64,000 bases of DNA from Branchiostoma floridae. Lineage: Eukaryota; Chordata; Leptocardii; Amphioxiformes; Branchiostomatidae. Position 1 is the first letter of the stretch; the number at the start of each line of letters is the position of its first letter. Location of the stretch: assembly GCF_000003815.2 (NCBI RefSeq), contig NC_049987.1, forward strand, positions 15,794,552-15,858,551, read 5' to 3'. The notes beneath the pieces were generated by a model that had not been told where the DNA came from, made no database searches, and saw only the letters and a program-made list of their open reading frames with translations. Positions 14,008-51,499 of the stretch are shown here, in pieces. The position numbers were made by a program, and so were the translations under genes.

Positions 14008-14142
14008 CTGTCTTTCCTGGAACCTGAAACCAGAAATAACAACATTGGAATGTATAATAGCTCGTAAAGCTTAAAGTTAAGTTATATGGACCTCTTTCAA
14101 CTTTCAGGAAATGATGAAACATGTACGAGTTGTACCTGCAAG

Positions 14143-18994: not shown

Positions 18995-19230
18995 TTAGAC
19001 CTCTGAATCCGTATCTGATGCTGGTTCGATATGTATTGTCACTTTACACTCAGTATCAATGACTGGACAGGACTGCTTCTGAGAGGCACGTGTTTGGCAT
19101 TTTCGTGTTCTGACGTTGACACGGCCCCGGTCGTCCCGTGGAAGGATGGAGTTACAGATGTCCAAGCTTTCATCAAGTCCATCCTGAAGAAGGCGTAGGT
19201 TAGCTTGCAGCTCTTCCAGCTTCGGTTCAC
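18995..19230 (-). CDS. Exon 41: cytoplasmic coiled-coil tail and stop
   Basis: The last exon encodes about 78 residues. It begins PKLEELQANLRLLQDGLDES, a heptad-like amphipathic helix that fits the C-terminal coiled coil through which polycystins assemble. It continues through a Cys/Arg-rich stretch and ends in the acidic DTDSEV. The acceptor ttttctgcag|GT at 19231-19232 is strong. A candidate polyadenylation signal follows about 430 bases downstream. Confidence 0.85.
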
Positions 19231-22200
19231 CTGCAGAAAACAAAGCAGAGCAATTCTGATTGACGACTAGCTCTACCACCTCTAAACTGTACTTCCTGTC
19301 ACTGCAGCAAGTATGACCTTTTGTGGTCATCTACCCATTCACTGACTCTCTGCCACTCTACTGTCTGTCAGATAACTACAAACTGTCAAACACGCACACA
19401 CTCACATGGACCAAAAACTCCGTAAATGAGATTAAAACCGTTATGATTGTGACATAAATTTAGTTTCTCTAAAGCCAACAATTACCTCATACATTTACCA
19501 AATGTTTCAAGTGACTTATCATTAATGTTTTTCATGGCCGTATGCAAATAAGGTCCTCATCTGCGCTGCATACATTACATCAGCCGATCAGACACCCGGA
19601 GACGGCAGTGCAGTACTAGTATCAAAGTCGTGTCTAGGCAAAGAAGGTTGTTGTAGCATTTCGTTATAAACTTCATGTGAAGTTAACTTAATCTAAAAAT
19701 ATAAGTTTCGAAGTCCAATGCTATCACTAGCTTGCTTCGGGTAACGCAACCTGCTTTGTCCTGATTGTTTGGTGGGCTGTGGAAACCCAACATGGCATTG
19801 AAGCTCCTCCACACGTGATCGGCAAGTTCACGGTCATGGGTGACGTCAACGTCAGCGGAAATGGCGTCACAGATGATGGTCATGAGGAAGTTCATCAGGA
19901 GGATGAAGATGCAGATCATGAATGTGGAGAAGAAGATCGGCCCGGTAATGGGGTTGGAATCCAGCATTTCATTGGCAAAAAACCTACAAAACAAGAAATC
20001 ATAGATCTAATACGTCCGTGAAATATATTTTGTGTGTGTGTGTGTGGGGGGGGGGGGTATTTATCTTATTCATTATTGTGATTTTTGCGCTTATTCGGTC
20101 AATGCATTTCCCTGTCTCTCAAAATAAAGCAGGGATTAGTATATCAGGAGATTGAAGACAGGGAATACATAGCATATTCTAGGACCTTTGACCTAATGTA
20201 TGTGGAAACCAGTTACGTTTATACTATTGCATTGAAATAACTACAGACTGCTACACAATAAAAAAAGCAGACACACGGAAATCAAAATCTTCGTACATGG
20301 AAAAAAGCACACAGAAATTCACCTATCGATACCATTCTTCAGATAATGACGTAACAGAAATACTTTTGGATTTAGTCATTTAACGACAACCTTTATGCAT
20401 CATCATTTTATGCAGATACATAGATGCTTTCACAATCATATGGAAAACGTACCTGCCAAGCATCATCTCAAATAGCGCGTATGTTGTTTGGTACAGGTCC
20501 GAGTACGACTCTATGTGGCTCCCAAACACAAGGTACCCTGGAAACAACGGACGTGCCAGTACAACCACTCGTGATCAATGCTATATGTTGAATGGCCAGC
20601 AAAACATTACATGACAAGTGAATCTGCAGCTTTCAATAAGATCAAGCTGTAGCACGTATTTCCTTGGTTACTAGAATGATAATCGGATCGCTCTTAAACA
20701 CCCTGAATGTAAAATAGCACTGGCGATGTAACCGACATCAGCATACACGGGTATTTTAAAACATCCCTTTGCACATACCGGAGCTGATGAAGGCCGTGAA
20801 GGCAACTACAGCAACGACCGAGAACGACAAGATTTCCTCCTTCATGATGCCGGGTAGAGCCAGGAGTTTGCCGATCGTTTGACTGAAGCGGACGATGCGC
20901 AGTAAGGAGATGGTGTTGATGAAGACGGTGATACCCAAGACGTGTTTGAAACAAGCATCCCACCAAGCAGCGGTTGTCAGGTCCACAAACTCTTGAAATC
21001 CCAGATCTCCTGTGAAACGAAAAACACAAAAGATATATCAAAACCGGACGTTCTGTAGTAGTACTATGGAAAGCCACTAGGGGGCAGGGAGTCCAATTAT
21101 TTCTCAAATTTGCCATTACCCATCTAACATCTCATCAAGTTTAATATGAATATGGTTAAGGGCATAGTCTGTTAAGGTTTGTTTTTTCTTTATGCACTTG
21201 TATATACAATATTGTATCTACCACTCAAAAATTATGACTACAGCATGTCCAGAACTCGAGATATCAGACCCGTAATTTCCACTAGTACTACAGTACCATA
21301 ATAAGCCGCTAGGGGGCCCAACATCCGATCGTTTCATTAAGTAAGGTAATTAAGGCAGAATGTGTAAAAGCTGGACAAACCATTGCTCCTGGCCACCAAG
21401 GCGAGTGTATCAGCAGCCACGGCGTACCGCTTGATGAAGACGGAGATGGTTGTTGCCGTACAGATGAGGCTGAACCATCCAACAGCATTCCACGGAGAAG
21501 TAAAATACACCCACCCTGTATCTACCACTGACTTAACCTCCTTGAAGTGTATGACTAAGAAGAGAAGTGTGAATACGATGTGCAGAAACAGACTAGTGTA
21601 GTCATTAGCGCTTTCGTATTGAAACAATCGAAACAACGTGGTTTTTGCTTCTGGCATGAGACTGCCAATTTCAGAATGGTCTATGGCCATGTGCACAACG
21701 CTGAACAGCTTCAAATTGGGGTCGTAGAAGTTGATGTCAATTGTAAAGGACTCTGTGTATTTATCTAAATACTCGGAATCTTTCAAAGCATTAATGAACG
21801 ACATAGCGGTGCCATAGCCAAGAGGGAAGTCGAGAGAGTGAATGTTGTTGCAGTCAGATGAGTAGTTGGGGTGGTTAGAGAGGGCAGGAAAGAGGAATCG
21901 CCAACTGGTACTAGAGATGTTCCCTGGTTGAACATCCCAGCCTCGGCCAGCATGTTTCTCCTTCGCCATGGTACCTGGATTTAAAAAAAAATCACAATTG
22001 GCAAAATTGACATGTTTCTTCAGGACCTCAATTATCCGAAGAAAATCATTGAATAGATCTGAAGCCATTGACATGTCAGTACAATGTTGTACATATTGTT
22101 GAATAAAGCTACTTCGTAGGTGCATAATGCATTCATCCACGAAGAAAGCACAGTGCGAGTTTGGCATGTAAAGCCCCGGTCACAAAGCGCGTACGATTTC

Positions 22201-23649
22201 TTGCGATGGTATATTCCGCATATCGTACGATGAGCGCAGTAAATCGCAGCAAAATCGTAAGCAAAATCAGCCATCGCAACGCATCGGATGATGTTCAAAA
22301 TTTTTCCAGCGTCGTACGATTTTTCACTTGTGTCTCTTTTGAATAGCCGTCTGGCCGCTTTATGGCTTCTTTAACAAACAAAATGTGGACATAGCTGTTG
22401 AAAACCTTCCTATAATATCTTAAACTGTAAAAATAACTTTAAAAAAGACCATGACAACAAGAGTATTACAAGCAAAAGTTCAAATCAAGCGTGAGTACTG
22501 GTATGGTTATCTCGGCCTGCTTGCCGGCTCTACGTGTCAGGCTCTTTCCAAGATCGTATCATGATATGCTATCAACAAAAAGATGCCATCATACAAAAAT
22601 CATATCATAGGCATTATATCATATATATTTCCGACTCATAGAGCCTGCCTTTATGTTCGAGTTGTCCCCATGGTTATTACGATTATGGTAAAATGAACCA
22701 AGACCGACGAGAGCTGAGATTTGATCTAATTAAAAACTCATGTGCATGAAGCGATCAAACAATTGTCTGCATCACCTGTGCGGGGCGCGCTGTTCTCTGG
22801 TTGCGACTGTGGCAGTTGCGACTGATATATTTTCCCTTTTCGTCAATATCGACAATATCAGGGAAAACTGAAACCATCACAACATGCTAAAAATTCATAA
22901 ATCTATAACCTCATCAGTAGACAAAAATTGCCGTAATGAAGTCTGCTATGGAGGCAAATAAAATCTTACGACGATAGCGAAATTTTGAACATGTTCAAAA
23001 TCCATTTCAGCTCTATTTTTCGTCATACGACGCTCCCCGATTTACTATGATTTACTGCGATTGACGCGGGCACGCTCTAATGACCTCATCGCACGATGCA
23101 CTGCGCGCTTTGTGACCACGGCTTTATATATTTAAACCATTGCTTCCGATTCTCCCCCGACTTACGACGCACTGCGCTCATACTGCGCATCGGAAGGAAT
23201 CNNNNNNNNNNNNNNNNNNNNNNNNNNNNNNNNNNNNNNNNNNNNNNNNNNNNNNNNNNNNNNNNNNNNNNNNNNNNNNNNNNNNNNNNNNNNNNNNNNN
23301 NGGAATCGTACGCGCTTTGTGACCGGGGCTTTAACTGCTTATAGAAGAAAAAAGATAAACACAAGGATTTCCCAAACTTAGGTGATGAAACGGTAAGTAG
23401 AAAACTCCAGAAGATATACCTGGATGTTGTCTCATCTGTGTCAGGTGTGCAGGGCCGATGCGGAAGGCCGCGGTGTTGTAGGCGAACTGCCGGTCTAAGT
23501 ACCGCATCTTCCGCCCGTTGTACCAGGATGATGGGTGGAGGGTTGGCAACAGCACCTCCTCAAGCCAGGAGTACAACTGATCAGGTGTCCTGATCTGGAC
23601 GAGAAATAAAGTGTTATTACGGTCACCAATGTTTTCAGGAGCGTTTTCA

Positions 23650-23687
<38 letters not shown>

Positions 23688-24635: not shown

Positions 24636-24666
<31 letters not shown>

Positions 24667-27600
24667 GTCTGTGTGTGTGTGTGTTTGTGTGTGCGTGTGT
24701 GTGTGCTTGTGTGCGTGTGTGTAGTTTATTCTATTTGTGCAAAATGATAATAAAGGTGAGCATTCCACCCAACACGTACAATTCGTCTGAAAATGAACAC
24801 GTCATTTGTTTAGTAGCTCACCGCATCAAACTCGTTCAGAATGTTGCTGGCCAGTGTATGCCTCTCGTAGAAGGCCAGTGTGTCCTTGTCCATCTGTGCG
24901 GCGTAGAACAGGAGGGCCACGAAGGCTAACAGCAGGACAAACTCCATCAGCGTCGAGGCAGACTTCTTATCCAGCTCCTTTTTCTTCTTAGCCGACTTGA
25001 GATTTACTGTTGCAGGTCGAAGGAGTTTCTTTGGTGCTAGAAGACAGGAATGTCAAACAGGAATTATGGTTGAAGAGCCGTATTGTTGCCGACATTGTTA
25101 TGATCATGGTCGCACTTCAGGTTAGTTTAGGAAGATAAACAAGACACCACGATGACAGAATATAGATCACGTACAAGAAAAATTCAGACTCAAATTGTGA
25201 AACACATGTATAACCATTTCAGACAATTGTGATTCCCTTATGTTACTTCAATCCAGGGCTGCCTTTAGAACCTGTCTCTTTTTCACAGGACCAAAATTTG
25301 TATGTTGGGACGAAAAAGAACCCAGTGGATAGCAAGCGAAATTATTGAGCCAGCGGTCACAACGGATAATGGTACTCAGGCTAAAACGATTCACTCCATT
25401 TGTCAAAAAAAACTACCATCATGACATTAAATGGATAAAGATGTACTTTCATAACGTTAAAATGACACATATAGATAAGAAAATTAATACCATTGACGAA
25501 CGATGAAAATACTCAGTAGAATATTTAATTTATTTCCTAAACAACGAGATGATGAAATACCTTCTCTATATCTCGTCCGCAGTGCATTGTTCTAGAGATA
25601 CATCTTATACATTCATAATTAAACACAATCTTATTCAAACAACGAATCTCAAAAGTGGTTGCGTCCAAACCTGTAGTGTTCCACAGGTTGAGCTGCAAGT
25701 CGTCTTTCGGGATAGCCGGCGGCCTGGCGAGGTACGGGAGGCTAAAGATGGCAGCCAGGACCACACCAAGCACAAAGATCTGTTCAGAGAGAGTAAGATG
25801 GTACCGGTTGTATTGTCATAGAACGTCCTCAAAAAGATATTACACATATGCCATTGTAAAGATAATGCCATTATGTCGTATAAATTTTCCATGGTTTAAC
25901 AATAGAAAACAGTAACAAAAAGAAAAGAGAGATTATCATATTACTTTCACTAGAGTTGGTACAATATTGTTTTTGTCATAGTGTCGTGGTGGCGCTTTGA
26001 ATAATGTTCATTAACGTGAATCGGTACATCTATACGGCAATCTGCTGTACAGCATATATGCGAGTGTACCTAACCTTTGCTATGATGTTTTATTTCGTAA
26101 CAAGGGTTTATGGTTACTGTAAATGCATTTAAGTTCGCAGGTATTTAATTTCGCGGTAGCGGAAAAAGGACTTTTCGCGGTGGTTTTAAATTCGCGGGTG
26201 CACCATGTACTGTAGTCTCTTACTGCCAGGGAAAATGTTCGCGGTGGTTTTAAGTTCGCGGCGAAGTGACCACCGCGAAAACCGCCAACATAAAACCACC
26301 GCGAACATTTCTGCATTTACAGAATTAATCAAAATCCTCTCTATAAGACGAAACGCCATGGCTAAGGTCAGGTTACCCACACATATATGTTGCTCCTGTA
26401 ATATTAGGCATGTTAGGTATGTAAGAAAGGAGTAGAAACAGACAGAAACAAATCCTGACTCCCGGGATTCAAACCAGCGCCGAACCCGGGCCGCCAGATC
26501 ACAAATCCAGACGCTAAACCACTACGCTAAAAGGCTGACAGTCGTTTGGCATGATCAGTTACAAACCCCGTTACAAGTCCAATAAGTTACCTGAAGGGTT
26601 TCCACCACACTGATGGATCCCATGAAGGACAGGATGAAGGCCTTCATCCAGGCGTCACTCCTCTCCTTGCCCCAGTCCATACTGTACAGGATGACGAAGA
26701 ACGCGGAGCAGGTGGACACCAGGAACACGGCCATCCACGCCACGTACCTGGCCATGCGGCGCACGGACTTCTGCAGATGGCCTGGGGTCAGGAAACAGTG
26801 ATTTGGATAGCAAATTCTCTTACGTAGGAGGAGAAACTAAAACTCACAAGGCATTTAGTCTTCTTACGTGTCGACCATTAAAAATAATAATGATAATAAT
26901 AGTGTCACAGCTCAGTTAAAGACGTGCTTGATTAGTTTACATACTTTGCTTGAACGTGCCGACAGCCATCTCCGGCGTGCTCACAGTCAGTGGCGCCTCC
27001 ATGCGGAATAGTTGTACAACAATCAGATTGACCGGAAATACAGTCAGGATAGTCATGAGACTGGTGTACAGCTCCTGTGAATACATTTACATTTAGGAGG
27101 TAACACATTCTAGGAGTAACACAATGATGAGGTAACGCATTTAGCTCGTTTAGTAGTACGAATTCCTTTCTTTTGAACTGATCCGAAGAAATGCACTGAA
27201 GACGATGGTAATATAGTGGCATTAAATAGGAACGGTTCCATATCCCTACAGCGCATGGTGCAATTGAAAATGCGATCAATAGAAGTAGGCACTTCATTAC
27301 ATGTAGCCATATTGTCCAGTGACTTCGATGCTAAAATTGTAAACATGTAGGAAACTCTATACCTGTATTGTGAAACGAACAAACCCCAGGTCGAACACTC
27401 TTGTACCAGCAGTTGTGGTTTCTGCCCCGTACCACATGGCGCTGGCCAGCATCATGGTATTCAGGAGAGTAAAGCAACAGGACAGCCGATGTGCCTGGGT
27501 GAAGCTGGAACCTGGTGTAGACAAGGCCAAAAGTGCATTGGATTTGGTGAATTTACAGGGTGTAGAATATCTGTAAATTATGGTGTCGGCATTGAGACGC

Positions 27601-42600: not shown

Positions 42601-45600
42601 GACCGCGCAGTCCAGGCTGCGCTTGCCGGCGATTTTGTGATGTCCTGTATAAAAAATCTGCTATGAGTTCCCACCAGATTTGGCATCATCTGACAGGTTC
42701 AAGATTTCATTATCCATGCTGGTCGACACTATTTCGTAGTCATACTTAACTCTATCCAGACCGGGGGGGGGGGGGACTAAAAGTACCTGCGCCAACTTTG
42801 ACATCCTATAACTGCCGAACGACGTTCGTTGGTTTTATTGCGAGACCAAACTTGTTTATCTATATCATTAACATCCTGCGTAAGTTTAAATTACATTTCT
42901 AATTAAATATTCATAATTTATGCTAATTTGATGACGTCATGGCTCAAAATCCAAGATGGCGGACAATGCCATTATCAACATTAAATACATGTTATTTTTA
43001 CTCAAATTCCGTCAAAATCTTTTATTTTCTTACAAAATACAATCACTTGAACCCTTTTAGTCCACTTATATTGGATTTTGGGGTTATATGTAGAAAAAAA
43101 AACGTATTTCAGAAAATTCAAGCTTGTCGATCCAAAATGGCGGACAAATGACGTGATTTTCTGACGTCATACAGGCGTCAGCGTCGTCATCGGCAACAAA
43201 AGACTTGGCAGACTTAAAACCACAGAAGTTACCGTTTATAGTCATCATTTTGTTTAATACCTTTAGGTATAGCGAAAATTCAATATTTAGACGATTTTAG
43301 CCCCAAATATGACATTATGACGTCATAATTACGTCATATTACGTCATTACGATACCAAAATTACAGAAAATATAACACTTCACTAGTACATCATCTCCTC
43401 AAAATTTGGTGATCGTATCAAATTACGAAGGGGGGGTCAAAAGGTATCCCAAAAAAGCCCGGTCTGGATAGGGTTAAGGCTTTACAGAACCCCGGGTTGT
43501 CGTGGTCGCCCACCATGGTGCTGGATCTAAGCGCCCGGCCAAGGCGCATGGGCCAGGCCAAACATCGATATAGCTGGAGGTCTCAACCTCTCGAATATCG
43601 CGATTAATAACTTTCGCAGTTGTCCAGCTGACCGTGACGTCATCACCCATACACAGGTAGACGCCTGATTACCCTGCTAAATCGGTCAGACAGTCCTACA
43701 GGCCGCGTCTTTGGTGCTAGGACGACGGAGTCCGGCGGGGATTGTCTCCTGACGGCAAACGTTGGACGCTCTGCCTATCCTGTCGCCCGTCAGCTCGAAA
43801 ATACTCTGGCCTAATACATTGTCAATGGAGACAGAGTATTTTTAAGGTTCTTAAGAGAGCGAAAAGACCACGACACTGCCTTCTCAGTCATCGCACCTTA
43901 CGCAAAGCAGGCAGATATATTACTGTAATCCTTTTTTTTAAATAGCATTTTCTATTTTCTAAAAACGATAGACTTACGCCGTGTGAATGCTATTATTCCG
44001 TTGCCATAGATACACTCCCCTATTGGAGTCCCCCTGATAGTCGTACTCGAACAGAGGTCCTGACGCTACTGTAGGGTCCGTGTAGACGTGGGCTAGTATG
44101 GTGTAGGAAAAGCGTACGTCCAAACCACCGTCGTTGAGAATGCGAATGTGCGAGGAACCGTTGAACAGGAAAGCTTGAGATTCTGGACCGCCTGGACCTT
44201 CAACCACCTGAGTTCCTGAAGCTATGCCGTCATTTCCGTTTCCGGTAACATCTCTCGCGCCATCTTGTTCGTTCAGAGGCCACCGGCCCACTGGCTCTAG
44301 TGCTGAATCTGTACAATTAAAACAAAGAGGCATTTAACACTTAATATTTAAAAAAAAAATCATTTGTCAAGGCACACATGTGACTTACGTCGACTCTAGG
44401 CCTTTTCCGCTTGCTTAGCTGTGTATGAGTAGATTTAGGGTCTGTACGTTATTAACTGGGGGGGAGGCTCTGAGGGTCAGGTAAAAAGAATTCCATGACC
44501 CTCCTGTCTGTTTAAAGTCTGTCCGGACCTGGACCTGGGCCTAAATGTTTTGCACCTGTACCCACCCTAGTCCGTAAAAAATTGAAATCCTGATCCTCCG
44601 AATCGCCATTTCCTGCATCTTGAGGGGAAAACTGTCCTGGTAGACTTGTATTTTTTACAAGAATCAAGACAACCAGAACTTTGCGCGGTATTTTTTTCAA
44701 AGGCTCTTCCCCCTTCTAAAAAAACTTCAATGGCCCTCTTCCCAAGCCGCAAATAAAATTCAATGGCCAGTGCACAAGCCCTCCCCCCTGATGAATATCG
44801 TAGGGTCCCTTACCGAAATGCAATCTGACTAGTATAATTACTTGGCTGTTATGGGAGTAGAAACTTCAATATAGCACACCATCACCAAACTACATTTTAT
44901 GCCATAATTTCGATTCACAAAGCGATTTATANNNNNNNNNNNNNNNNNNNNNNNNNNNNNNNNNNNNNNNNNNNNNNNNNNNNNNNNNNNNNNNNNNNNN
45001 NNNNNNNNNNNNNNNNNNNNNNNNNNNNNNNTAGAGACAGAGTGCACGTGGTTAAAGTGGTTCAACAAGAGAGATGAAAGACTCACGTGCAACAACTCCA
45101 GCCCGCATGCTAGGCCAGTCTCGCCATGTCAGTGGATGGAACTTGACGTAACGGGCGGTGATGGCGCCACTGTAGGACGACAGCTCATTTCTCACAGGGG
45201 TGTTTCTGTCAGTATTCCCTGGGAAGGTCTGGAGGAAGATTGAGCACAAGTCATCGAGTGACCAGAAAGAAGGGATATGATTCGTGTGTGTGTGTGGGGT
45301 GGGGGGGGGGGTGGCATTTGAAAAAAAAAAAAAAAACTACGGATGGAATGATATGAAACTTGGCATGTGCTTAGGTCATGTCCTGTCGAAGATTGTACTC
45401 TCGTTTTTCTGGAGGTTCTCCTTAGTACTGCAGCAGAATGTCCGGGTTTAATCAAACTCTTTTTTTCAATAATTTTTTGGGGCGTTTTAGTAGCATACTT
45501 TGAAACAGGAGAACTTCAAAATAGATGAATGAGATTTCTTTTCGACTCGTAGGCAACTTCGGTGAATAACAGCGAAATAATATGTTGACTATGCAAATTA

Positions 45601-47789
45601 GATGTTAGCATAGTTAATGAGATGAATTTATATTCAAATGGTGCTTAATGACAGGAACTTTCTTCTCGTCACATATGTAGCTTGGTTCGAGAGGAATATT
45701 AATTGATAGGAACCATGCATGGTCGTATTTGCATAATTTGATTACAAAAGTGTATAATTCATTAGTTGGAAATGATAACATGTTCATACTAGTGGCACAA
45801 GTAGGTTAGACAAAAGTGAATATTATCAGGCATAACTTAAGATGAAAATAATTTTGACATCATTTGTATAATCAATGAATGTGGGAATGTTACAATAACT
45901 TCCCAAAGAAAGACATATGCAACATACTAGTATGGTATTTGAAAACAAAAATGACACAATCAAGTCATATAAATTCTGTTAATAAGAGACTATCTTGCAT
46001 ATCATTTGCAATGTAATTTGACAAAAGTACTTTGCGATGGTAAGTGGTCATGGAACTCTAGTTCCGTTTATAGAACATACATGCTAAACATACAGAACTC
46101 TTTCGTTTTGTATCTAAAATAAGTGGTTGGTAATAAACCTAAGGAGATTACGTTGCAACATTATGATAATGATACTTACTACCGTCAGTCCGTCGTCATC
46201 GCTGTAGGTAACCTCGTCTCCACTGTGCTCGCCATATGTGATGCTGTACGATGTGACCATGTGGCCACTGAATTGTTCGTCTCTACCCTGGGTGATAATC
46301 GCCGTTACAAAGTACGTCTTGTGAAGATCCACCATTAGCCATTCGCGTTGATCAGGTGTTCTAGGCGCCCAACCTCCAGAAAGCGGGAAATCCAGTACAC
46401 CGTTGTCTGGACCCTCTGTGTTGTTATACTGTGACGATGCAGACATGCTCGGGGATCGAAAGGCGTCTGCATCAAAGAAAACAAAAGATATGTAGGTGTT
46501 AACGTTTCTTGAATACCGCAATGGAACAATCGCACATGATGTCACGGGTCACGTGATTTTTTTATGCCGCAGTCTTGTTGGGTGTTAAGTTTTAATTTAC
46601 CGTCTGCAGTTCCAGGTGAGATCTGGACATCATGACCAGCAAACGTCTATCAAATGACAAGATTTACGGACGCCGATCGGCGGTCCAACTGTGCCTAACA
46701 TCTAGTGACTACATAACGTAACACAATGTAGATATAGACTAATATTGAAGCGTTGTTCAGTTGTAACCTTGATATGTATGTTTCTTTCAATTTTGGTAGA
46801 TATTATAGTAAAATGTTGCTTCAGAACATTTTTCAATCTAAGGGTGCGGTCACATACGTCTTACGATCGTCTTGAGTGTAGCCATGCATGTGTGTACGTT
46901 ACAAAGTTCAACTGTCTTGCTGCACTAAAAGGCTGTGTCGGTGGTTGGTTCCGTTACAGTCTGCTTGAAAATCCTATAGCTATGGCAGAAAAATCGTACG
47001 ACGGTCGCACGACGTACGTACTTTGTAAGCTTTGACTGGCTTACCACATTGGTTGTCAGTGATTGATACGCTCCCGTGTATCGTCCACGCTTCCCTGGAC
47101 CAGTCCAACACGTTGCCTCCCTGTCCGCACTTACGCAGAGGGAGATCTGCCTCTCTCGGTGACAGCACACGATCCCACACGTTTAAGCATGACATGTCAC
47201 CGGTGTATGCCTGGATAGGATAAAACAATATTTGTATAAGAGCTGATACTGTTATGATCTCACCACCTAGTGGGAGATTGTAATTTGCTATTTGCAAGGA
47301 AACCGCAAGGGGTCGCAAGCTGGAACAACTTCCTTCTTCTGCCAATCTGACTTAGGTCAGACGTAAGATAATGAAACCCATTGTAAACATCGTGCTGTAC
47401 AACAGAAAACGTTTCAATGTGAAATTGATTTTTTAATCCTGTCATAACGTTTCGAGTAGTACTTCATCCCTTTGAAAGGACGTTAAGTAAGGGCCCCATG
47501 TTTAAGAAGAGTCACGCCTTGAGCACGATTAATAAGAACCTGCCACACTTATCGGAAAAGCTAGGTCTCCGGACCGATCTTGAACAGGCTGTAGTCACCT
47601 GTTATGTCAGTCCTTTCAAATGTGCAGTATATTCTACCAAATAAACGAGATATCAAAAACTTTAGTTTCGCTGAAGCACATTAGAACGCCGCTAGGGGGC
47701 CATTATCGAACTTGACCTTCGTTTTCCTGACCCTACCCACCTGCCAAATATCACCAGGATTCATCAAAGGCTTTTCGAGTTATGCTTAT

Positions 47790-47842
<53 letters not shown>

Positions 47843-48703
47843 AAATATAACCTTATTGGCGAAGGTAAAAAAGAGCATGTCTTCACTTGCCTGGTCGACA
47901 TCAAATAACCCTCCTGAGTCCTGCACTTGGCCAATAATCCACGCGGGGCCTGTACGGATCACGTGACCTGTGGCCAATCCAGAGCCGGCGCCGACCTGTT
48001 GTCCATCGACGTAGAACGACCATCGGCCATCCTGACTCAGCCAGGTGTAGCACACTGTGTGGCATCTGCCATCGTCAAGGTTCAGTCTTGTCTCATTGGC
48101 TGCGGCGTGTTTGTGTGCACCGTTGATCCAGAACTAAAATCGGAACAAGTGACCTTGGTTTTGTACGATATAAATTCTTATGAATCAAAAACCCTCCGAT
48201 CTTCAGCGTAGAATAATGTCTTGCCGATGTCGACATGGGCATTAATTTCAATTTTCATTCGTAATTTGGAACTATTTTCACATTATGAAAATATCAATAT
48301 TATCATCATTACATTGGTATTTGTGTTAAAGCTGTACTACGTAAGATTTGAACAAAACAAAAAATAGCTTTTCCTACTTTTTCTTTACATTGTTAGTTCA
48401 ATCAACCCTATAGCATTGAAATATAATGAACACCGAAAAAAAAAACACTCTCCGATCATGGAGGTGATAAATAGAAGAGTGGTACCCTGAATAGTCCGTA
48501 GTAGGTTAATGCAATCTGATCACCACTGAATAGCACCCCGTTTGTCGTGTTTGAGATGTGAAGTTGCACACACGTGGTCAGAGCATCCAGCCCAGGAGGC
48601 GTGGTGACGTTCAGCCAAACGTAGTTACTGGTCGATGCCGGTTCAGGGAAAGTCATCTTCTTCAAACAACAACCTGAAATGTTTCATAGCAATCAATCAA
48701 CAG

Positions 48704-48735
<32 letters not shown>

Positions 48736-51499
48736 ACAATTAACCAATTCATCTATCAGATTGTAATATATTGCATTGTGATAGCACATCGATATCACTT
48801 TGTAATGGGGTTACTCCCGGAGCAAAACGTCGAGTAAGGTTAGATAAAATGGCATTTTGACCTTCCGTTGTTTTCTCATTAATGAATTAAGAAAGAATGA
48901 AACCGTAACGAATATAGATAGATGGGCATACAAGAATTCTAAATCTAATTTTTTGGCCATATAGATGATGTCATCAGGTTTTATTGCCCCTAATACTAAT
49001 TTTTTTCTATGAGAAAATACAGCACTTTGGTGCATAATGATGAAAGCTCGAAACTCACGTTTGCACCACTTGATATCAGCTAATGATCTGTAGTTAGGCC
49101 ATGTTGATTTGATTATATGTATGACATCCTCTGGGAACTCCAAAACTGATGCGAGCGAGCGAATAAAAAAAGTTTGGCCCCCCAAAAAAAGTTGCTTTCA
49201 GGGCTGACGTCAGAGTTGCGTTGCGCGGTAGAGGGCAAAAAATGGGAAGACGATTTGGGTGTGGCTTAAAATCCTTGAAAATCCACCTTTTCCTTGAAAA
49301 TGTTTGCCCAATCTGGAGACTTTTTGAGTTAGAAGAGACATGTAGGGTCTAAGCTTTCCTGTTTGGGTCAAAATTTGTTCAGTTCAGCAGTTCAGCTGGT
49401 GTAAGGACAGGTTTTAGTTATAGGGTGCTACTGGTTGTATCAGGAGGGAAAAGGGGTCAGAGGTGAGGTTTCTTTCATAGAGCGAGCTTTTCTCGGAGAA
49501 AGAGCAGAACAACCCTCTGTTTTCTTTGAATGGTTATAAACTAGACCCAAGTGACTTTCTGGTGGAGAAGAATTTTTAAGATTGAACTATGGGTTAGTAC
49601 TTTTTTGAAGCCTTCATTTAGTGTATTTCAACATGCTTGTCAATGGGCAGCCCTAACTTCGATGTCTGACCTTCAGTGTGAAATCAAAGTGGCCAGGAAG
49701 GTTGAAAATAGGACTAAACACACATAGTATGGTATACAAACAGTTAGGTGTAGGGACCAGTACATCATACGGGTGCAAAACATTTTTTTCTTCTTGGACC
49801 AATCCGAAAAAAACAGACCTGAAAAAAAATCAGAGGAACAGGTTTCGCCAATTACAAAATGGACACACTATGTTGGCAGGCATTTGGGGTCTTACCGGGG
49901 GGCCAAGAAGACAAGTAAGAGTTTATAGTCAATTGTACCAAGTTTCTACAGTCAAAGGTACAGAGACAGTTAGCCTTTATTACATGGAGATGGGATTTTA
50001 AAATGCCCATGGGAATCCAATAATCCACCAAACAGATTCCTTTGTAGCAAATTTGATCAATTACCATTGTTTTGAGTATTGCCAGTTCTCGAGTTTCCAC
50101 AGACAATCAGGTCCAGGTTCAGGTCCGGACCTGGAAATGATCCTCTGGACCTGAATTTTCTGTACTGGTACCTCCCCCAACCAACAATAGATTTTTTTTC
50201 TTTCTGTCCTTTCACATCTTATTCTTTGACTTTAGATTTATTTTGGCATTCTATGGCTTTAGTTATCTGTTTTCTGATACTTTTTTTTTCAATCTACGGA
50301 ATATTGTGCTCATTTTATAGCTGCTTTGTACAATTTATTGTGTGGTCGAAACTTTTTTTTTGGGGGGGGGGGAAACGGCCGAAAATTGGTGCGAGCGCGG
50401 ATGTCATCCATATAATCAAATCAACATGGCCTTATTAGAAAATAATTGTTTTCATCTAATTAAAAAAGTTAATTTTCTAATAATTACAGATCATTAGCAG
50501 ATATCAAGTCGCGCCAACGTGAGTTTGTAGCTTTCATCATTATGCACCAAAGTGCTGTATTTTCTCATAGAAAAATATATTAGGGGCAATAAATCCTGAT
50601 GAAGTCATCCATACGGCCCAAAAAATCAGATTTAGAATTCTTTCATGCCCATCTATCAATATTCGTTACAGTTCCATTCTTTCTTAATCAATTAATTAAT
50701 TATAAAACAATGGAAAGTCAAAATGCCAATTTAGCCAACCTTGAAACCTTAAGAGGAGTAGCATCAGTACAAGACAGGGGCTTCACTTTGACATTATTAC
50801 CCGCAATTCTTTTCACGGCGCATGCGTACTCGGAAGTGTGAACGAGCGTATTCCAAAAGCATAAATAGCACAGATTTATTACAGTATCTTCGTGTTCAAA
50901 ATTGACTGTAAAAATGCCATGATCGTAGTTTGAGCTCTGTGAGTGATATGTATAAGGCCATGTTGATTTGATTATATGGATGACATCCTCCAGGAACTCC
51001 AAAACTGATGCGAGCGAGCGAATAAAAAAAGTTTGGCCAAAAAAGAAAGTTGCCTTCAGTATGAAATCAAAGTGGCCAGGAGGGTTGAACATAGGACTAA
51101 ACACACATAGTATGGTATACCATGATCCTCTGGACCTGAATTTTCTGTACTGGTACCTCCCCCAACCAACAATAGATTTTTTTTTTTCTTTCCGTCCTTT
51201 CACATCTTATTCTTTGACTTAAGATTCATTTTGGCATTCTATATATGGCATTAGTTATCTGTTTTCTGATGCTTTTTTTTTCAATCTACGGAATATTTGT
51301 GCTCATTTTACATTTTACAGCTGTTTTGCACAATTTATTGTGTGGTCGAAAACTTTTTTTTTTGGAAATGGCCAAAAATTGGTGCGTATCCAATTAATCA
51401 GATCAACGTGGCCTAACCTAGAAAAAAAATCTCACCGGCTTGACTAAGATGTACAAGGCTCACCAGAACGGCGAGCACCTGGAGGTACCCAACCCTCAT
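18995..51499 (-). CDS. Polycystin-1-type 11-TM protein with pentraxin/F5-8C/LamG/C-lectin/FN3 ectodomain (41 exons)
   Basis: This is a complete gene model read exon by exon on the minus strand, start codon at 51499 and TAA at 18995. The 41 exons total 8,139 nt and 2,712 residues. Splice phases agree at every junction, and all introns but two have GT-AG ends. Domain order with approximate residues: signal peptide 1-21, pentraxin 22-220, F5/8C 221-363, LamG-like 364-571, C-type lectin 572-705, FN3 706-1107 with one extra exon, Ser/Thr-rich stalk 1108-1221, REJ/GAIN-like 1222-1600, GPS 1601-1680, TM1 near 1710, PLAT 1776-1930, TM2-TM6 1931-2195, polycystin domain 2195-2400, TM7-TM11 and pore to 2600, coiled-coil tail 2634-2712. 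GPS, PLAT and 11 membrane segments place it in the polycystin-1 family, which act as surface receptors and channel partners. The ectodomain differs from human PKD1 as I know it (no LRR or PKD repeats seen). Exons are detailed in separate entries. Confidence 0.87.
19751..21009 (-). CDS. Exons 38-40: TM9-TM11 and channel pore
   Basis: Exons 20779-21009, 20453-20537 and 19751-19983. TM9 carries an S4-like stretch with spaced basic residues (NTISLLRIVRFSQTIGKLL), followed by TM10 (LSFSVVAVVAFTAFISS). The pore helix is YSDLYQTTYALFEMML, then the selectivity position reads LGR where polycystin-2 channels have LGD. TM11 is IFFSTFMICIFILLMNFLM. The Asp-to-Arg change would put positive charge at the filter, as if this subunit tunes or blocks cation flow; that is inference. 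The exon 40 donor G|GTTGCG is weak but keeps phase with exon 41. Confidence 0.9.
21381..23594 (-). CDS. Exons 36-37: polycystin (TOP) domain, TM7 and TM8
   Basis: Exons 23420-23594 and 21381-21974. The extracellular polycystin domain between TM6 and TM7 is recognised from YSWLEEVLLPTLHPSSWYNG, then FRIGPAHLTQMRQ, GWDVQPGN, DFPLGYGTAMSFINALKD and NFYDPNLKLFSVVHMAI. TM7 is SLFLHIVFTLLFLVIHF and TM8 includes SPWNAVGWFSLICTATTISV. In polycystin-2 channels this domain caps the pore and mediates subunit contacts. Intron 36 (21975-23419) contains a long TIR element and one N gap; no exon appears to be missing because phase and protein continuity hold. Confidence 0.9.
22169..23333. mobile_element. 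Long-TIR element (GGTCACAAAGCGCG family) in intron 36
   Basis: The left end TAAAGCCCCGGTCACAAAGC is matched by a perfect inverted copy ending at 23333. A second, slightly diverged inverted end lies at about 23100-23126, so this may be two nested or adjacent copies. The interior has no intact ORF, is rich in CGTACGA-like words, and contains a 100-base N gap. TA dinucleotides flank the outer ends. Confidence 0.6.
23963..24540 (+). mobile_element. Internally deleted mariner element
   Basis: Terminal inverted repeats beginning CGAGGGGCGTGCAATAAGTA are present at both ends, flanked by TA dinucleotides as expected for mariner target duplications. The length is 578 bp; full-length mariners are about 1.3 kb. 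Inside, the ORF from 24146 starts MEPVECRAVIRFLYLKGRTP and holds the N-terminal helix-turn-helix of a mariner transposase (with RPGRPS). It then jumps directly to the C-terminal motif RWEKCITLGDSYEEKD in a shifted frame. The DDE core is missing, so it is non-autonomous. It lies in intron 35 of the polycystin-like gene. Confidence 0.85.
24822..27511 (-). CDS. Exons 31-35: TM2-TM6
   Basis: Exons 27363-27511, 26945-27074, 26591-26781, 25671-25779 and 24822-25036. TM2 contains RLSCCFTLLNTMMLASAMWY, matching the conserved start of the second segment in polycystin-1 proteins. TM3 is MTILTVFPVNLIVVQLF, TM4 VAWMAVFLVSTCSAFFVILY, TM5 spans exons 33-34 (ETLQ joined to IFVLGVVLAAIFSLPYL), and TM6 in exon 35 is TLMEFVLLLAFVALLFYAA after a Lys-rich stretch. 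TM6 is equivalent to the first segment of the TRP-like channel unit shared with polycystin-2. Introns hold a CGCGG-type MITE, a tRNA-like repeat and an internally deleted mariner. Confidence 0.88.
26115..26322. mobile_element. CGCGG foldback MITE, copy 2
   Basis: Same family as the element at 14143: starts TACTGTAAATGCATTTAAG and ends in the inverted form, with internal CGCGGTGGTTTT repeats in both orientations. It lies in intron 33 of the polycystin-like gene, 330 bases downstream (on the gene strand) of exon 33. Confidence 0.6.
26455..26540 (-). repeat. tRNA-derived sequence (SINE-like) in intron 33
   Basis: On the minus strand TAGCGTAGTGG (A-box-like), a pairable anticodon arm CTGGATTTGTGATCTGG and GGTTTGAATCC (B-box-like) occur in order, but the variable region is too long and the acceptor stem does not pair. 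It lies 126 bases upstream (plus coordinates) of exon 33. Confidence 0.4.
27745..29426 (-). CDS. Exons 28-30: PLAT/LH2 domain
   Basis: Exons 29154-29426, 28583-28743 and 27745-27923. After a basic linker the PLAT domain opens with YQLTVSTGSMFGAGTTSRVG, continues FQLGGSEG, then VMTLHIWHDNSGKGDTSSWF, LGNFVVRDV, and ends YFTCNDWLSE. This intracellular beta-sandwich between TM1 and TM2 is diagnostic of the polycystin-1 group and absent from polycystin-2. It binds phospholipid and calcium in studied members. A MITE copy lies in intron 29 at about 27993-28249. Confidence 0.92.
27993..28249. mobile_element. GCCAAAAAGCAGTTACT MITE, copy 1
   Basis: Arms of about 50 bases are inverted: the left arm runs GCCAAAAAGCAGTTACTCAA into GGATATGATTTTGGAAACGG, and the right arm repeats this in reverse. 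The non-coding centre mentions no ORF. It lies in intron 29 of the polycystin-like gene; related copies are near exons 25 and 27. Confidence 0.6.
29850..30590. mobile_element. LINE-like 3' fragment in intron 27
   Basis: Related to 9095-9482 by shared words and by minus-strand translation. The 126-codon minus ORF here has no domain I recognise and is not continuous with polycystin exons 27 or 28, which splice across it in phase 0. Confidence 0.35.
30607..31909 (-). CDS. Exons 26-27: GPS autoproteolysis motif and first transmembrane segment
   Basis: Exons 31770-31909 and 30607-30843. The GPS motif is spread over the junction: CPSWKDN, then W and GDCD in exon 26, then CKCHVTG in exon 27. GPS motifs normally cleave at HL|S or HL|T; here the site reads HVT, so the catalytic His and the Thr nucleophile are kept with Val for Leu. 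TM1 follows in exon 27 (STVVSEYILYILILVLL). The exon 27 acceptor (30844-30845) lies in sequence homologous to the end of a MITE seen elsewhere in the gene. The donor is read as AGT|GTGAAA to keep phase 0. Confidence 0.85.
30847..30985. mobile_element. GCCAAAAAGCAGTTACT MITE, copy 2 (truncated, reaches exon 27 acceptor)
   Basis: One arm of the family is present from about 30881, with the homologous outer flank (TCGATGAAGGTTAGACATCC on the plus strand) extending to within two bases of the exon 27 acceptor AG at 30844-30845. The inner part is shortened. Confidence 0.55.
31100..31575. repeat. Local duplication in intron 26
   Basis: About 85 bases around 31107-31192 recur at 31487-31572 (shared AGATAATGTCAAAGGTCTAC). 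Non-coding. Confidence 0.6.
32054..32489. mobile_element. GCCAAAAAGCAGTTACT MITE, copy 3 (abuts exon 25 donor)
   Basis: Left arm near 32088-32140 and inverted right arm near 32417-32486, with a longer centre than copy 1. The right arm ends 9 bases from the 5' end of intron 25. It occupies most of intron 25 (31910-32495). Confidence 0.55.
32496..34738 (-). CDS. Exons 21-25: REJ/GAIN-like region
   Basis: Exons are 34604-34738, 34165-34255, 33648-33814, 33263-33496 and 32496-33006, encoding residues about 1222-1600. Helix-rich sequence (LQEIVEEIDISDL, FAADLVSDLAEATRG, ETAESIVTSLDHVADTLL) precedes a strand-rich part with several N-glycosylation sites (NIS, NMT, NFS, NTT). That arrangement and the GPS just after it fit the GAIN domain and the tail of a REJ module; no canonical REJ signature is obvious. 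Exon 22 appears to end ATG|GCGAGA, a non-GT donor, which is the only way I found to keep phase. The exon 25 donor (32495) lies 9 nt from the inverted repeat of a MITE. Confidence 0.7.
34931..36022 (-). CDS. Exons 17-20: Ser/Thr/Pro-rich stalk
   Basis: Four short exons, 35888-36022, 35478-35570, 35115-35171 and 34931-34986, encode about 114 residues rich in Thr, Ser and Pro (for example SYTTTSTTDVV, TSTPTWSTSP, TTSTIG-like runs, PPLSSTISAT). Such sequence usually carries O-glycans and acts as an extended stalk. All exon starts are phase 1 and the first three end in phase 1, so each could be included or skipped without breaking frame. Exon 20 ends in phase 0 and marks the switch from the phase-1 ectodomain to the membrane half. 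Confidence 0.75.
36211..40248 (-). CDS. Exons 11-16: four fibronectin type III domains plus one intervening exon
   Basis: Exons are 39961-40248 (FN3-1), 37858-38133 (FN3-2), 37642-37761 (a short unassigned exon), 37268-37528 (FN3-3), and 36522-36657 with 36211-36335 (FN3-4). FN3 hallmarks are the strand-B tryptophan (SLRWKYP, VRVSWRKQ, ISISWLTP, LLEWMPP) and the strand-F tyrosine (YNVTVRAI, YVISATSI, YDIGVVAVS, YVIKMAAFG). FN3-1 to FN3-3 are single-exon 1-1 modules; FN3-4 is split by a phase-2 intron. The 120-nt exon 13 (starts SSCSILGRVDSSAGKN) matches no domain I know. It is phase symmetric, so it could be skipped without a frameshift. Confidence 0.85.
36835..37145. repeat. Interrupted TG/CA microsatellite
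   Basis: Long TGTGTG-rich tract broken by CATGAATG and TATCTG words in intron 14. Several Cys-Val or His-Thr ORFs here are artefacts of the repeat. Confidence 0.8.
38890..39340. repeat. About 151-bp tandem repeat, three units
   Basis: Units begin near 38901, 39052 and 39203, each with GTGTGTGGAAGGG-like starts, then CCAGAAC, TGCGATCGCAATGA-like words and ACACTGCAGGTAGCC. Similarity is clear but imperfect. It lies in intron 11. Confidence 0.6.
39778..39900 (+). pseudogene. LINE reverse-transcriptase C-terminal fragment
   Basis: A short plus-strand reading frame gives TRRRWIEGVAETVRAHGLTL followed by LLEATHLAQDR. That is the typical last segment of non-LTR retrotransposon ORF2 proteins (basic RRRW, then helix, then AQDR). 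It lies in intron 11 just before exon 11's 3' side and is antisense to the gene. Confidence 0.55.
40396..41028 (-). CDS. Exons 9-10: C-type lectin domain
   Basis: Exons 40819-41028 and 40396-40587 encode residues about 572-705. The fold is clear: CPYGWYLSGYVCYRAF at the start, EFWIGLSDLG in the middle (the WIGL motif), then WLWTDGTSIGQFTAW, NQPNYHEGDQFC, WNDANC and a final FICE. The calcium-site motifs are QPN and WND, so the sugar-binding loop is a mix of the EPN (mannose) and QPD (galactose) types. WND is intact, so calcium binding is plausible; sugar preference cannot be read. C-type lectin domains are known ectodomain modules of polycystin-1 relatives. Both outer junctions are phase 1. 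Confidence 0.92.
41845..41908. repeat. Perfect 31-bp-arm palindrome with 2-base loop
   Basis: The left arm starts ACACCAAAATTCATGTCAGC and its exact reverse complement follows after two bases. It is in intron 8, 72 bases from the exon 8 donor. The sequence has no relative elsewhere in the window. Confidence 0.9.
41980..44308 (-). CDS. Exons 7-8: LamG-like (concanavalin-type) domain
   Basis: Exons 43978-44308 and 41980-42272 encode residues about 364-571. The sequence VGRWPLNEQDGARDVTGNGN, then FLFNGSSHIRI, and later DRWHYVGGSYD, ISCLQLFDFSLNEHQI is the jellyroll pattern of LamG-like/pentraxin-related domains. The N-terminal phase is 1, the internal junction phase 2, and the C-terminal phase 1. 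Intron 7 (42273-43977) carries a piggyBac-like MITE. A 64-bp perfect palindrome lies in intron 8 shortly after the exon 8 donor. Confidence 0.82.
42746..43477. mobile_element. piggyBac-like MITE with TTAA ends
   Basis: The right end read inward is TTAACCCTATCCAGACCGGG and the left end is TTAACTCTATCCAGACCGGG, one mismatch, giving a 732-bp element with TTAA at both borders. TTAA targets and a CCC-type start are characteristic of piggyBac-derived MITEs. The interior is non-coding, contains several TGACGTCA-like and ATGGCGGACAA motifs, and has a run of G near the left end. It sits in intron 7. Confidence 0.6.
45087..46466 (-). CDS. Exons 5-6: F5/8 type C (discoidin) domain
   Basis: Exons 46180-46466 and 45087-45228 encode residues about 221-363. 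The discoidin fold is seen in the opening DAFRSPSMSASSQY, then GGWAPRTPDQREWLMVDL, TAIITQGR, the strand SYSITYGEHSG, and the closing ARYVKFHPLTWRDWPSMR. Both outer boundaries are phase 1 and the internal intron is phase 0, so the domain is a 1-1 module. These domains bind carbohydrate or phospholipid head groups at the cell surface. The exon 5 donor is taken as GTA|GTAAGT, the stronger of two nearby choices and the one that keeps frame. Confidence 0.88.
45330..46060. repeat. Dispersed repeat family (CTAGCGG type), copy 2
   Basis: Diverged member in intron 5, keeping the ACTGCAGCAGAA, ATGCAAATTAGATG and TTTGCATAATTTGAT words. Non-coding. It fills most of the space between exons 5 and 6. Confidence 0.5.
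47045..48673 (-). CDS. Exons 2-4: pentraxin domain
   Basis: Exons 48486-48673, 47891-48133 and 47045-47210 encode residues about 22-220. The pentraxin fold is recognised from a KKMTFPEP start, then HTVCYTWLS followed by GRW.FYVDG, then GHVI, GQ.QD, GG.FD and the closing GDMSCLNVWDRVLS. The family signature is normally H-x-C-x-[ST]-W-x-[ST]; here the His sits one residue further from the Cys. Pentraxins bind calcium and ligands such as phosphocholine or matrix components, so this is probably the outermost ligand-binding module. Intron 3 uses a GC donor (CAG|GCAAGT at 47890). Continuing past it would add an unrelated tail, whereas splicing gives FDVDQ joined to AYTGDM exactly as the family expects. 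Confidence 0.88.
47789..47838. repeat. (CA)n microsatellite
   Basis: About 25 CA units in intron 3. Other short simple repeats are TG at 23655-23683, TA at 24635-24662, ATCA at 48700-48732, and single-base runs near 20047, 42766, 45300, 50362 and 60651. Confidence 0.9.
48835..50750. mobile_element. Nested inverted-repeat element in intron 1
   Basis: An outer pair of arms (about 48835-49096 and 50434-50750) is inverted. Each carries the words TTAGGGGCAATAAA, ATCTATCAATATTCGTTAC and CATCATTATGCACC or their complements. Between them lies an inner element (about 49097-50433) bounded by inverted AGGCCATGTTGATTTGATTA ends followed by GCGAGCGAGCG. No intact transposase ORF is present. A shortened derivative follows at 50953-51414. 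Confidence 0.55.
50953..51414. mobile_element. Internally deleted copy of the GGCCATGTTGATTTGATTA element
   Basis: Starts with the same terminus as the inner element at 49097 and ends in a diverged inverted copy near 51395-51414. The middle keeps the same segments as the longer copy (for example GTGGCCAGGAGGGTTGAA and CCCCCAACCAACAATAGATT) but lacks the remainder. It ends just 20 bases before exon 1's donor. Confidence 0.5.
51436..51499 (-). CDS. Exon 1 of polycystin-like gene: signal peptide
   Basis: This exon encodes the first 21 residues, starting MRVGYLQVLAVLVSL and ending in LSQA, a typical hydrophobic secretion signal. The donor is G|GTGAGA, phase 1, which joins to the GT of exon 2 to give glycine, probably close to the signal-peptidase site. 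The start was chosen because it is the only in-frame ATG giving a signal peptide and because the next exon opens the pentraxin fold. Intron 1 (48674-51435) is largely filled by repeated elements. Confidence 0.8.

What the first reader, a model, noticed from the sequence alone, without database searches (positions are those of the whole stretch)
18995..51499. Polycystin-1-type receptor with a pentraxin-F5/8C-LamG-CTLD-FN3 ectodomain
The exon-by-exon model gives a phase-consistent 2,712-residue protein whose membrane half is a standard GPS-TM-PLAT-10TM polycystin. Its ectodomain is headed by a pentraxin and a discoidin domain, where known human family members carry LRR, PKD, SUEL or CTLD modules. 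A pentraxin fused to a polycystin channel would link a soluble-type pattern-recognition fold directly to a channel subunit. The fusion is within one gene because each junction has splice signals in matching phase and the signal peptide joins the pentraxin directly.
Basis: partly seen in the sequence, partly recalled or inferred. Interest (0 to 1): 0.82.

Follow-up and report, generated by a model that had tools for sequence, protein, structure and literature searches.

The report
Pentraxin-headed polycystin-1 receptor gene family
This stretch, probably of an amphioxus genome, holds a 40-exon gene for a polycystin-1-type channel subunit whose outer part begins with a pentraxin, a fold best known from soluble blood proteins, and related copies elsewhere in the same genome argue that the combination is real and not two neighbouring genes read as one.

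Summary
Pfam confirms each named module except GPS, which is degenerate.

The main doubt, two neighbouring genes read as one, is answered by relatives in the same genome. Four loci (three on C9, one on C3) carry 37-39 of the 40 exons in order; a more distant C18 locus carries 34. Against C3 there is no stop in 2,508 aligned codons, dN/dS is 0.45 and indels mostly keep frame. Nine of nine module-boundary introns are phase 1. One tandem copy (C9c) has a 945-base insert in exon 24.

It is a polycystin-1-family subunit with a pentraxin ectodomain that none of nine paper searches showed. Most likely it regulates a PKD2-type channel through its lectin-rich head (inferred). Transcripts remain the decisive missing test.

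The parts
51436..51499 (-). exon 1: start codon and signal peptide (MRVGYLQVLAVLVSLVHLSQA)
   Evidence: found in 4 of 5 relatives incl. C18b at 62%; the C9c copy has N runs there
47045..48673 (-). exons 2-4 (48673-48486, 48133-47891, 47210-47045): pentraxin, residues 22-220
   Evidence: Pfam PF00354 1.4e-25; PDB NPTX2 8e-24; found in 5 of 5 relatives
45087..46466 (-). exons 5-6 (46466-46180, 45228-45087): F5/8C discoidin domain
   Evidence: PF00754 1.1e-19
41980..44308 (-). exons 7-8 (44308-43978, 42272-41980): laminin-G-like domain
   Evidence: PF13385 2.7e-9 on this segment
40396..41028 (-). exons 9-10 (41028-40819, 40587-40396): C-type lectin domain with QPN and WND
   Evidence: PF00059 1.2e-20 on this segment; in the C9 and C3 copies; not found in C18b, which has an assembly gap at this point
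36211..40248 (-). exons 11-15: four fibronectin type III domains
   Evidence: PF00041 5e-42, four stretches
34931..36022 (-). exons 16-19: Ser/Thr-rich linker; the least certain exons
   Evidence: DP model plus C3 alignment; 85 aligned codons, dN/dS 0.49; not found in C18b
31770..34738 (-). exons 20-25: GAIN-like region ending in the first half of a GPS-like motif (CPSWKDNVKQWVLGDC)
   Evidence: conserved in relatives; no Pfam or PDB match
30613..30843 (-). exon 26: second half of the GPS-like motif (CKCHVTGS) and TM1
   Evidence: weak GPS match only in the C3 copy
27745..29426 (-). exons 27-29: PLAT domain and following segment
   Evidence: PF01477 1.1e-16
24822..27511 (-). exons 30-34: membrane segments TM2 to S1
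   Evidence: hydropathy; alignment to polycystin-1 6a70_B
21381..23594 (-). exons 35-36: TOP (polycystin) domain and following membrane segments
   Evidence: PF20519 3e-10
19751..21009 (-). exons 37-39: S4-S6 and pore; filter position reads LGR where PC2 has LGD
   Evidence: PF08016 5e-27; PC2 alignment; Arg also in C9a-c and C3, Ala in C18b
18995..19230 (-). exon 40: C-terminal tail and stop
   Evidence: in C3 (78%) and C18b (47%)

Best explanation
The locus is one gene for a polycystin-1-family membrane subunit with a shuffled, lectin-rich ectodomain (pentraxin, F5/8C, laminin-G-like, CTLD, FN3x4) in front of a GAIN/GPS-like region, TM1, PLAT and a ten-segment polycystin core. Shown by sequence: module order, open frame, overall purifying selection, recurrence in relatives. 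Inferred from polycystin biology: it assembles with PKD2-type subunits and regulates them rather than conducting well alone, since the acidic filter residue of PC2 (LGD) is replaced in every copy looked at (Arg in the window, C9a-c and C3; Ala in C18b). The ectodomain senses outside ligands, or glycans on the channel's own TOP domains as reported for the PC1 C-type lectin, and shifts the gate; pentraxin and F5/8C would add or tune binding. Autoproteolysis at the GPS is doubtful in this family.
For: Pfam and PDB matches. Same exon series in order at three further C9 copies, C3 and C18b. By the two half-gene searches, 8 of 10 loci with 48% or more identity over the exon-36 part of the query, the window's own included, have a same-strand pentraxin match within about 35 kb upstream; a rough chance rate, with my guess of 60 pentraxin loci, is 0.002 per locus. 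No stop in 2,508 aligned codons, dN/dS 0.45 (0.38-0.52), indels mostly in frame. Splice sites against C3: of 39 acceptors 36 are AG, 2 unaligned, 1 reads TG in the alignment but AG in the C3 sequence itself; of 39 donors 35 are the same, 3 unaligned, 1 is GC in the window and GT in C3. Module-boundary introns 9 of 9 phase 1 against 13 of 30 others, p 0.002. The PC1 N-terminus with its CTL activates PC1/PC2 and needs a TOP glycan (PMC7728438, passages).
Against: No transcript. PMC6071037 (passages) shows that novel lancelet architectures are often prediction errors, including a chordin fused to a PKD_channel, and warns that identical predictions in related species do not prove them. A pentraxin with the same three exon pieces occurs in a non-polycystin, lectin-type locus at C19:3.70 Mb, so such exons can lie in other genes. 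Two of the ten close loci (C19 at 0.265 and 4.87 Mb) show no pentraxin match. One copy, C9c, has exon 24 split by a 945-base insert. For the pentraxin exons alone the dN/dS interval against C3 is 0.32-1.17. Channel assembly and gating are untested.
Confidence: 0.85

Rival explanations
1. Two adjacent genes: a secreted or anchored pentraxin-F5/8C-lectin protein, and downstream of it a PKD1-like receptor starting at the FN3 or GAIN exons.
For: No RNA data; a pentraxin-lectin locus with the same pentraxin exon pieces and no polycystin exon within 20 kb exists at C19:3.70 Mb; lancelet fusions are often false.
Against: Pentraxin and channel exons lie in the same order and on the same strand over 23-38 kb at eight loci on four contigs, the window included, with the intervening exon series shown at six of them (and the window). 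Junctions are in phase with conserved splice sites. The signal-peptide exon at 51499 is conserved in C18b. I did not search for a second start or signal peptide before later modules: the model allowed starts only upstream of 48600.
Confidence: 0.1
2. The gene is real but the window copy is a decaying member of a tandem array, kept similar by gene conversion, with the function carried by the C3 or C18 relatives.
For: C9b is 99% identical to the window over pieces of 3-4 kb; C9c is interrupted in exon 24; the window pentraxin loop has lost a Glu and is one residue shorter than in C3; one donor is GC where C3 has GT.
Against: Open frame of 2,674 codons; in the aligned exon pieces of C9a, C9b and C9c no small indel, while 129, 71 and 123 lie elsewhere in those alignments (not in the alignments are exons 21-25 of C9a, 14, 25, 26 of C9b and 1 of C9c, and exon 40 only in part); dN/dS 0.45 overall.
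Confidence: 0.07
3. Within the one-gene reading, the ectodomain is not a sensor of outside ligands but only a self-agonist: the CTLD binds TOP glycans, and the pentraxin, F5/8C and LamG modules are spacers or adhesion parts.
For: PC1 CTL mechanism (PMC7728438, passages); the CTLD has the lowest dN of the ectodomain modules against C3 (0.036); QPN and WND kept in all five copies that have it; the window pentraxin loop is altered.
Against: C18b keeps pentraxin, F5/8C and LamG while its CTLD was not found (an assembly gap lies there, so unclear); in the first 10 kb of the C19 locus neither CTLD nor LamG was found.
Confidence: 0.35

Closest known systems
Polycystin-1 family (human PKD1, PKD1L1-3, PKDREJ; sea urchin SpREJ)
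   Same: GAIN/GPS-like region before TM1, PLAT just after TM1, 11 membrane segments, TOP and channel domains; a CTLD in the ectodomain as in PKD1, PKD1L2 and SpREJ1-3 (PMC1934368, passages)
   Different: Pentraxin, F5/8C, laminin-G-like and FN3x4 in place of LRR, WSC, PKD repeats, SUEL or EGF; no Pfam REJ or PKD repeat at E<=10; GPS degenerate
PKD1L3 and polycystin-2 channels
   Same: TOP domain and S1-S6 align
   Different: The LGD filter of PC2 reads LGR; PC2 lacks the long ectodomain, GPS-like region and PLAT (recalled)
Adhesion GPCRs with a pentraxin (ADGRG6) and amphioxus adhesion GPCRs with unusual N-termini
   Same: Pentraxin in the ectodomain of a GPS-type receptor: the window pentraxin matches ADGRG6 6v55 at 6e-7; discoidin and C-type lectin are reported in amphioxus adhesion GPCRs (PMC2246102, passages)
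   Different: Seven-TM GPCR core, not a PLAT-polycystin core
Neuronal pentraxins, PTX3, CRP, SAP
   Same: Pentraxin fold by sequence
   Different: Mostly soluble proteins without a channel (recalled)

Membership tests
Polycystin-1 family | PLAT domain after the first membrane segment | tested here: met
   PF01477 1.1e-16, residues 1740-1848, after TM1 at 1664-1682
Polycystin-1 family | Eleven membrane segments with polycystin channel domain | tested here: met
   Ten segments by hydropathy (two overlapping windows counted once) plus TM2 by alignment to polycystin-1; PKD_channel 5e-27
Polycystin-1 family | GPS motif upstream of TM1 | tested here: inconclusive
   Cys/Trp pattern in place in relatives; no Pfam GPS in the window or C18b copy, C3 copy E=0.47 under cut-off; a profile of three copies finds no solved GAIN structure at E<=10
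Polycystin-1 family | Cleavage residues HL-T/S at the GPS (recalled) | tested here: not met
   HVT in window, RVT in C9a and C9c, HMT in C3, DMA in C18b; exon 26 of C9b lies in a gap. Not treated as family-defining: SpREJ10 lacks a GPS altogether (PMC1934368, passages)
Polycystin-1 family | REJ domain | tested here: not met
   No Pfam REJ at E<=10. Not required: human PKD1L3 lacks it and is still classed in the family on TM, GPS and PLAT (PMC1934368, passages)
Pentraxin domain | PF00354 over nearly the whole profile | tested here: met
   residues 28-215, profile 3-192 of 194, 1.4e-25
Pentraxin domain | Calcium-dependent ligand binding | not testable with these tools
   Loop reads GQVQD in window, C9a and C9b, GQVED in C9c, GQEQD in C3, AQRQR in C18b
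Adhesion GPCR | Seven-TM class B2 core | tested here: not met
   Membrane half is PLAT plus polycystin channel; no 7tm match at E<=10

The most novel reading that the evidence does not exclude
A clade of polycystins in this (probably amphioxus) genome, on C9, C3, C18 and C19, turned a pentraxin-lectin recognition head directly into the agonist-sensing part of a cation channel, so that binding of a microbial, gamete or damaged-cell surface opens a calcium-permeable channel without a separate signalling chain.
Probability: 0.2. Interest if true: 0.78.

Novelty: new variant of a known kind. Interest (0 to 1): 0.52.

Why it matters
It adds an ectodomain type to the polycystin-1 family with support beyond one gene model, and gives natural variants (different pentraxin loops, GPS residues and filter residues, with and without a found CTLD) for testing how polycystin ectodomains control the channel. 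It is also a checkable case in the dispute whether novel lancelet domain combinations are real or prediction errors.

Tried and rejected
The first gene model (47 exons, 2,790 letters with the stop) contained filler exons (44612-44556, 43748-43673, 42644-42460, 39541-39452, 32189-32170) and a different start; dropped after comparison with the other copies. In the second model four places were changed by hand after reading alignments: start of exon 8 (42260 to 42272), exon 25 (in place of 32044-32025 and 31862-31770), end of exon 30 (in place of 27433 and 27362-27293), and removal of 19417-19406. The final model is therefore partly hand-set. C3 lacks exon 13 in the alignment chain used for dN/dS and indels, though protein search finds it at 90%.

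A fifth FN3 near 39.3-39.9 kb was considered and rejected: no C3 match there. GAIN recognition by PDB profile gave nothing. Absence of the CTLD from C18b was considered as a gain in C9/C3 and not claimed, because the C18b assembly has a gap at that point. The second C18 stretch (L036) is mostly N; one exon was recognisable and it was left out of the exon counts. I first took C18b to share the LGR filter; reading the split codon shows Ala. Structure prediction was not used: the tool takes sequences that the DNA gives letter for letter, and this protein is spliced. One search used a query with one residue mistyped from C18b; its result is not relied on. A genome search with exons 23-24 did not complete.

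Papers: nine searches listed, by title and start of abstract, no paper on a pentraxin-polycystin. Several that hold both words were not opened (e.g. PMC9848320, PMC7911577, PMC13197933). A figure legend in PMC3269628 (passages) names PLAT, PKD_channel and F5/8C among domains found with rhamnose-binding lectin domains; which proteins combine them I could not see. The library lacks most subscription journals, and public gene models could not be consulted.

Full report
What is there. The window lies at C9:15794552-15858551 of a 513 Mb genome in 431 contigs. No tool names the species; size and content fit an amphioxus (Branchiostoma), which is my inference. Open frames on the minus strand between 18995 and 51499 spell out pentraxin, discoidin, laminin-G-like, C-type lectin, FN3, PLAT and polycystin pieces in order. 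A dynamic-programming gene model, refined with codon and splice-site conservation against four other copies and by hand at four places, gives 40 exons, 2,674 residues and one stop. Two runs of N (44932-45031, 23202-23301) lie in introns of the model.

Domains. Pfam on the product: Pentaxin (residues 28-215), F5/8C (228-359), Laminin_G_3, Lectin_C (593-705), four fn3, PLAT (1740-1848), Polycystin_dom and PKD_channel (2338-2560), each over its cut-off. The laminin-G-like module scores 2.7e-9 on its own segment. The nearest solved structures are neuronal pentraxin-2 for the head, with ADGRG6 at 6e-7, and polycystin-1 for the membrane half. Hydropathy gives ten membrane segments and alignment to polycystin-1 an eleventh. 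In the pore, PC2's LGD reads LGR; the Arg codon is split by an intron and is Arg in C9a, C9b, C9c and C3 too, but Ala in C18b. So the acid is lost in all six copies, while Arg is not general.

Is it one gene? Separate searches with the pentraxin-F5/8C half and the channel half meet at the same places. Of ten loci with 48% or more identity over the exon-36 part of the query, eight (the window's included) have a same-strand pentraxin match within about 35 kb upstream: C9 four times, C3, C18 twice, and C19 at 4.64-4.66 Mb. Two (C19 at 0.265 and 4.87 Mb) have none; both lists are capped. Exon by exon, the ordered chains hold 39, 37, 39 and 39 of 40 exons in C9a, C9b, C9c and C3, and 34 of 40 in C18b, where identity per exon runs from 32 to 79%. 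The missing ones: exon 40 of C9a lies past the fetched end; exons 14, 25, 26 of C9b, 1 of C9c, 17 of C3 and 9-10 of C18b fall at or beside runs of N; exons 16-19 of C18b, the Ser/Thr linker, were not found and no gap explains it. Flaws in the copies: C9c has a 945-base insert in exon 24; in C18b exon 5 appears split, with a stop in the stretch read through; in C3 exon 15 is out of frame next to a gap. The C19 locus differs in detail: the second and third pentraxin pieces lie in one frame, a further F5/8C half precedes the pentraxin, an extra FN3 is present, and no LamG or CTLD was found in its first 10 kb.

Coding evidence. Against C3, 2,508 codons align, none a stop; dN 0.079, dS 0.178, ratio 0.45 (95% 0.38-0.52). 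By part the ratio runs from 0.24 (S4-S6) to 0.79 (C-terminus); for the pentraxin it is 0.60 with an interval reaching 1.17, so purifying selection on the pentraxin alone is not shown from this pair. Of 18 indels in exons, 13 are multiples of three, against 76 of 309 elsewhere (p 5e-5). Of the other five, two in exon 25 sum to 12, two lie in exon 15 next to the C3 gap, and a 25-base one at the start of exon 38 is not seen when the C3 sequence is read directly. In the aligned exon pieces of C9a, C9b and C9c there is no small indel, while 129, 71 and 123 lie elsewhere; exons 21-25 of C9a, 14, 25, 26 of C9b and 1 of C9c were not in those alignments, exon 20 of C9a and exon 40 only in part, and the C9c insert falls between alignment pieces. 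Splice sites against C3: 36 of 39 acceptors AG, 2 unaligned, 1 TG in the alignment but AG in the sequence; 35 of 39 donors the same, 3 unaligned, 1 GC against GT. The nine introns at module boundaries are all phase 1; 13 of the 30 others are (p 0.002, on phases). That is the classical mark of exon shuffling, and PMC4284660 (passages) reports exon shuffling biased to phase 1-1 exons in lancelets. The boundaries and phases come from my own model.

GPS. The Cys/Trp skeleton is there, but Pfam GPS is absent in the window and C18b copies and weak in C3 (E 0.47), and the residues at the cleavage point vary: HVT, RVT, HMT, DMA. Autoproteolysis is doubtful and probably not a shared trait of this group.

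Ectodomain function. The C-type lectin keeps QPN and WND in all five copies that have it; I recall these as calcium and sugar ligands. The window pentraxin reads GQVQD where C3 reads GQEQD, so its calcium loop may be damaged. In PC1 the N-terminal fragment with its C-type lectin is reported as necessary and sufficient to activate PC1/PC2 and to need a TOP-domain glycan on PC2 (PMC7728438, passages). I take this as the model: a PC1-like regulatory subunit with PKD2-type partners, the lectin-rich head acting on TOP glycans or on outside ligands. Assembly, ligands and gating are inferred.

Place among known things. It meets the PLAT, membrane and channel criteria of the polycystin-1 family; REJ is absent, as in PKD1L3 (PMC1934368, passages). 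Zebrafish family members (PMC5318412, passages) and sea urchin ones carry WSC, LRR, PKD repeats, lectin, SUEL or EGF domains; the word pentraxin occurs in neither main text. A pentraxin on a GPS-type receptor is known from adhesion GPCRs (ADGRG6), and amphioxus adhesion GPCRs carry discoidin and C-type lectin domains (PMC2246102, passages). So the parts are known, and the combination is a new variant as far as my nine paper searches reach. PMC6071037 (passages) is the standing warning against such claims in lancelets; recurrence across diverged loci is my answer to it, short of RNA.

A related case without a channel. At C19:3.70 Mb a pentraxin in the same three exon pieces, 55-59% identical, is followed within 20 kb by C-type lectin, SRCR-like and EGF-like frames and no polycystin exon at E<=0.01 (SRCR and EGF by eye). 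The pentraxin module thus exists in other lectin-type genes here, which fits exon shuffling as its source and also keeps the two-gene rival alive until RNA is seen.

Noticed in passing
C9:15.18-15.84 Mb (L017-L029 and window): Four copies of this gene on one strand, spaced about 175-250 kb apart; C9b is 99% identical to the window over pieces of 3-4 kb, suggesting recent duplication or gene conversion.
   Followed up: partly
C9c copy (L025-L029), at the place matching window 32576: A 945-base insert in exon 24 with inverted-repeat ends (CCCTCATCCGACCGT / ACGGTCGGATGAGGG) and TTAA at both sides, like a piggyBac-type short element (class recalled). That tandem copy is interrupted in this assembly.
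   Followed up: partly
whole genome: Very many polycystin-type loci: 158 exon-level PKD_channel matches, a capped list, among others on C19, C3, C10, C17 and C2.
   Followed up: no
C19:3680501-3700500 (L038, L039): Frames of pentraxin, C-type lectin, SRCR-like, EGF-like and again C-type lectin type, without polycystin exons, with the same pentraxin exon pieces as the window gene.
   Followed up: partly
C196:195681-196715: Unplaced contig with exons 9-11 at 97-99% identity: a further partial copy or an unmerged haplotype.
   Followed up: no
window 24119-24442 (+): Fragment of a Mos1/mariner-type transposase (HTH_48, 1.7e-10) on the opposite strand inside the intron between exons 34 and 35.
   Followed up: partly
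window 47891, 34165, 30613 (donors of exons 3, 21, 26): Three of 39 introns are GC-AG; two are GC in the C3 copy as well, one is GT there.
   Followed up: partly
window 52808-53278: Pro-rich open frames over a 105-base tandem repeat, 92% matches; no Pfam match for the longest + frame.
   Followed up: no
window 13261-14070 (-): 270-residue open frame with hydrophobic segments and a long charged, coiled-coil-like stretch; no Pfam match.
   Followed up: no
window 38898-39310 and 53777-54456: 152-base and 246-base tandem repeats, the first inside the intron between exons 11 and 12.
   Followed up: no
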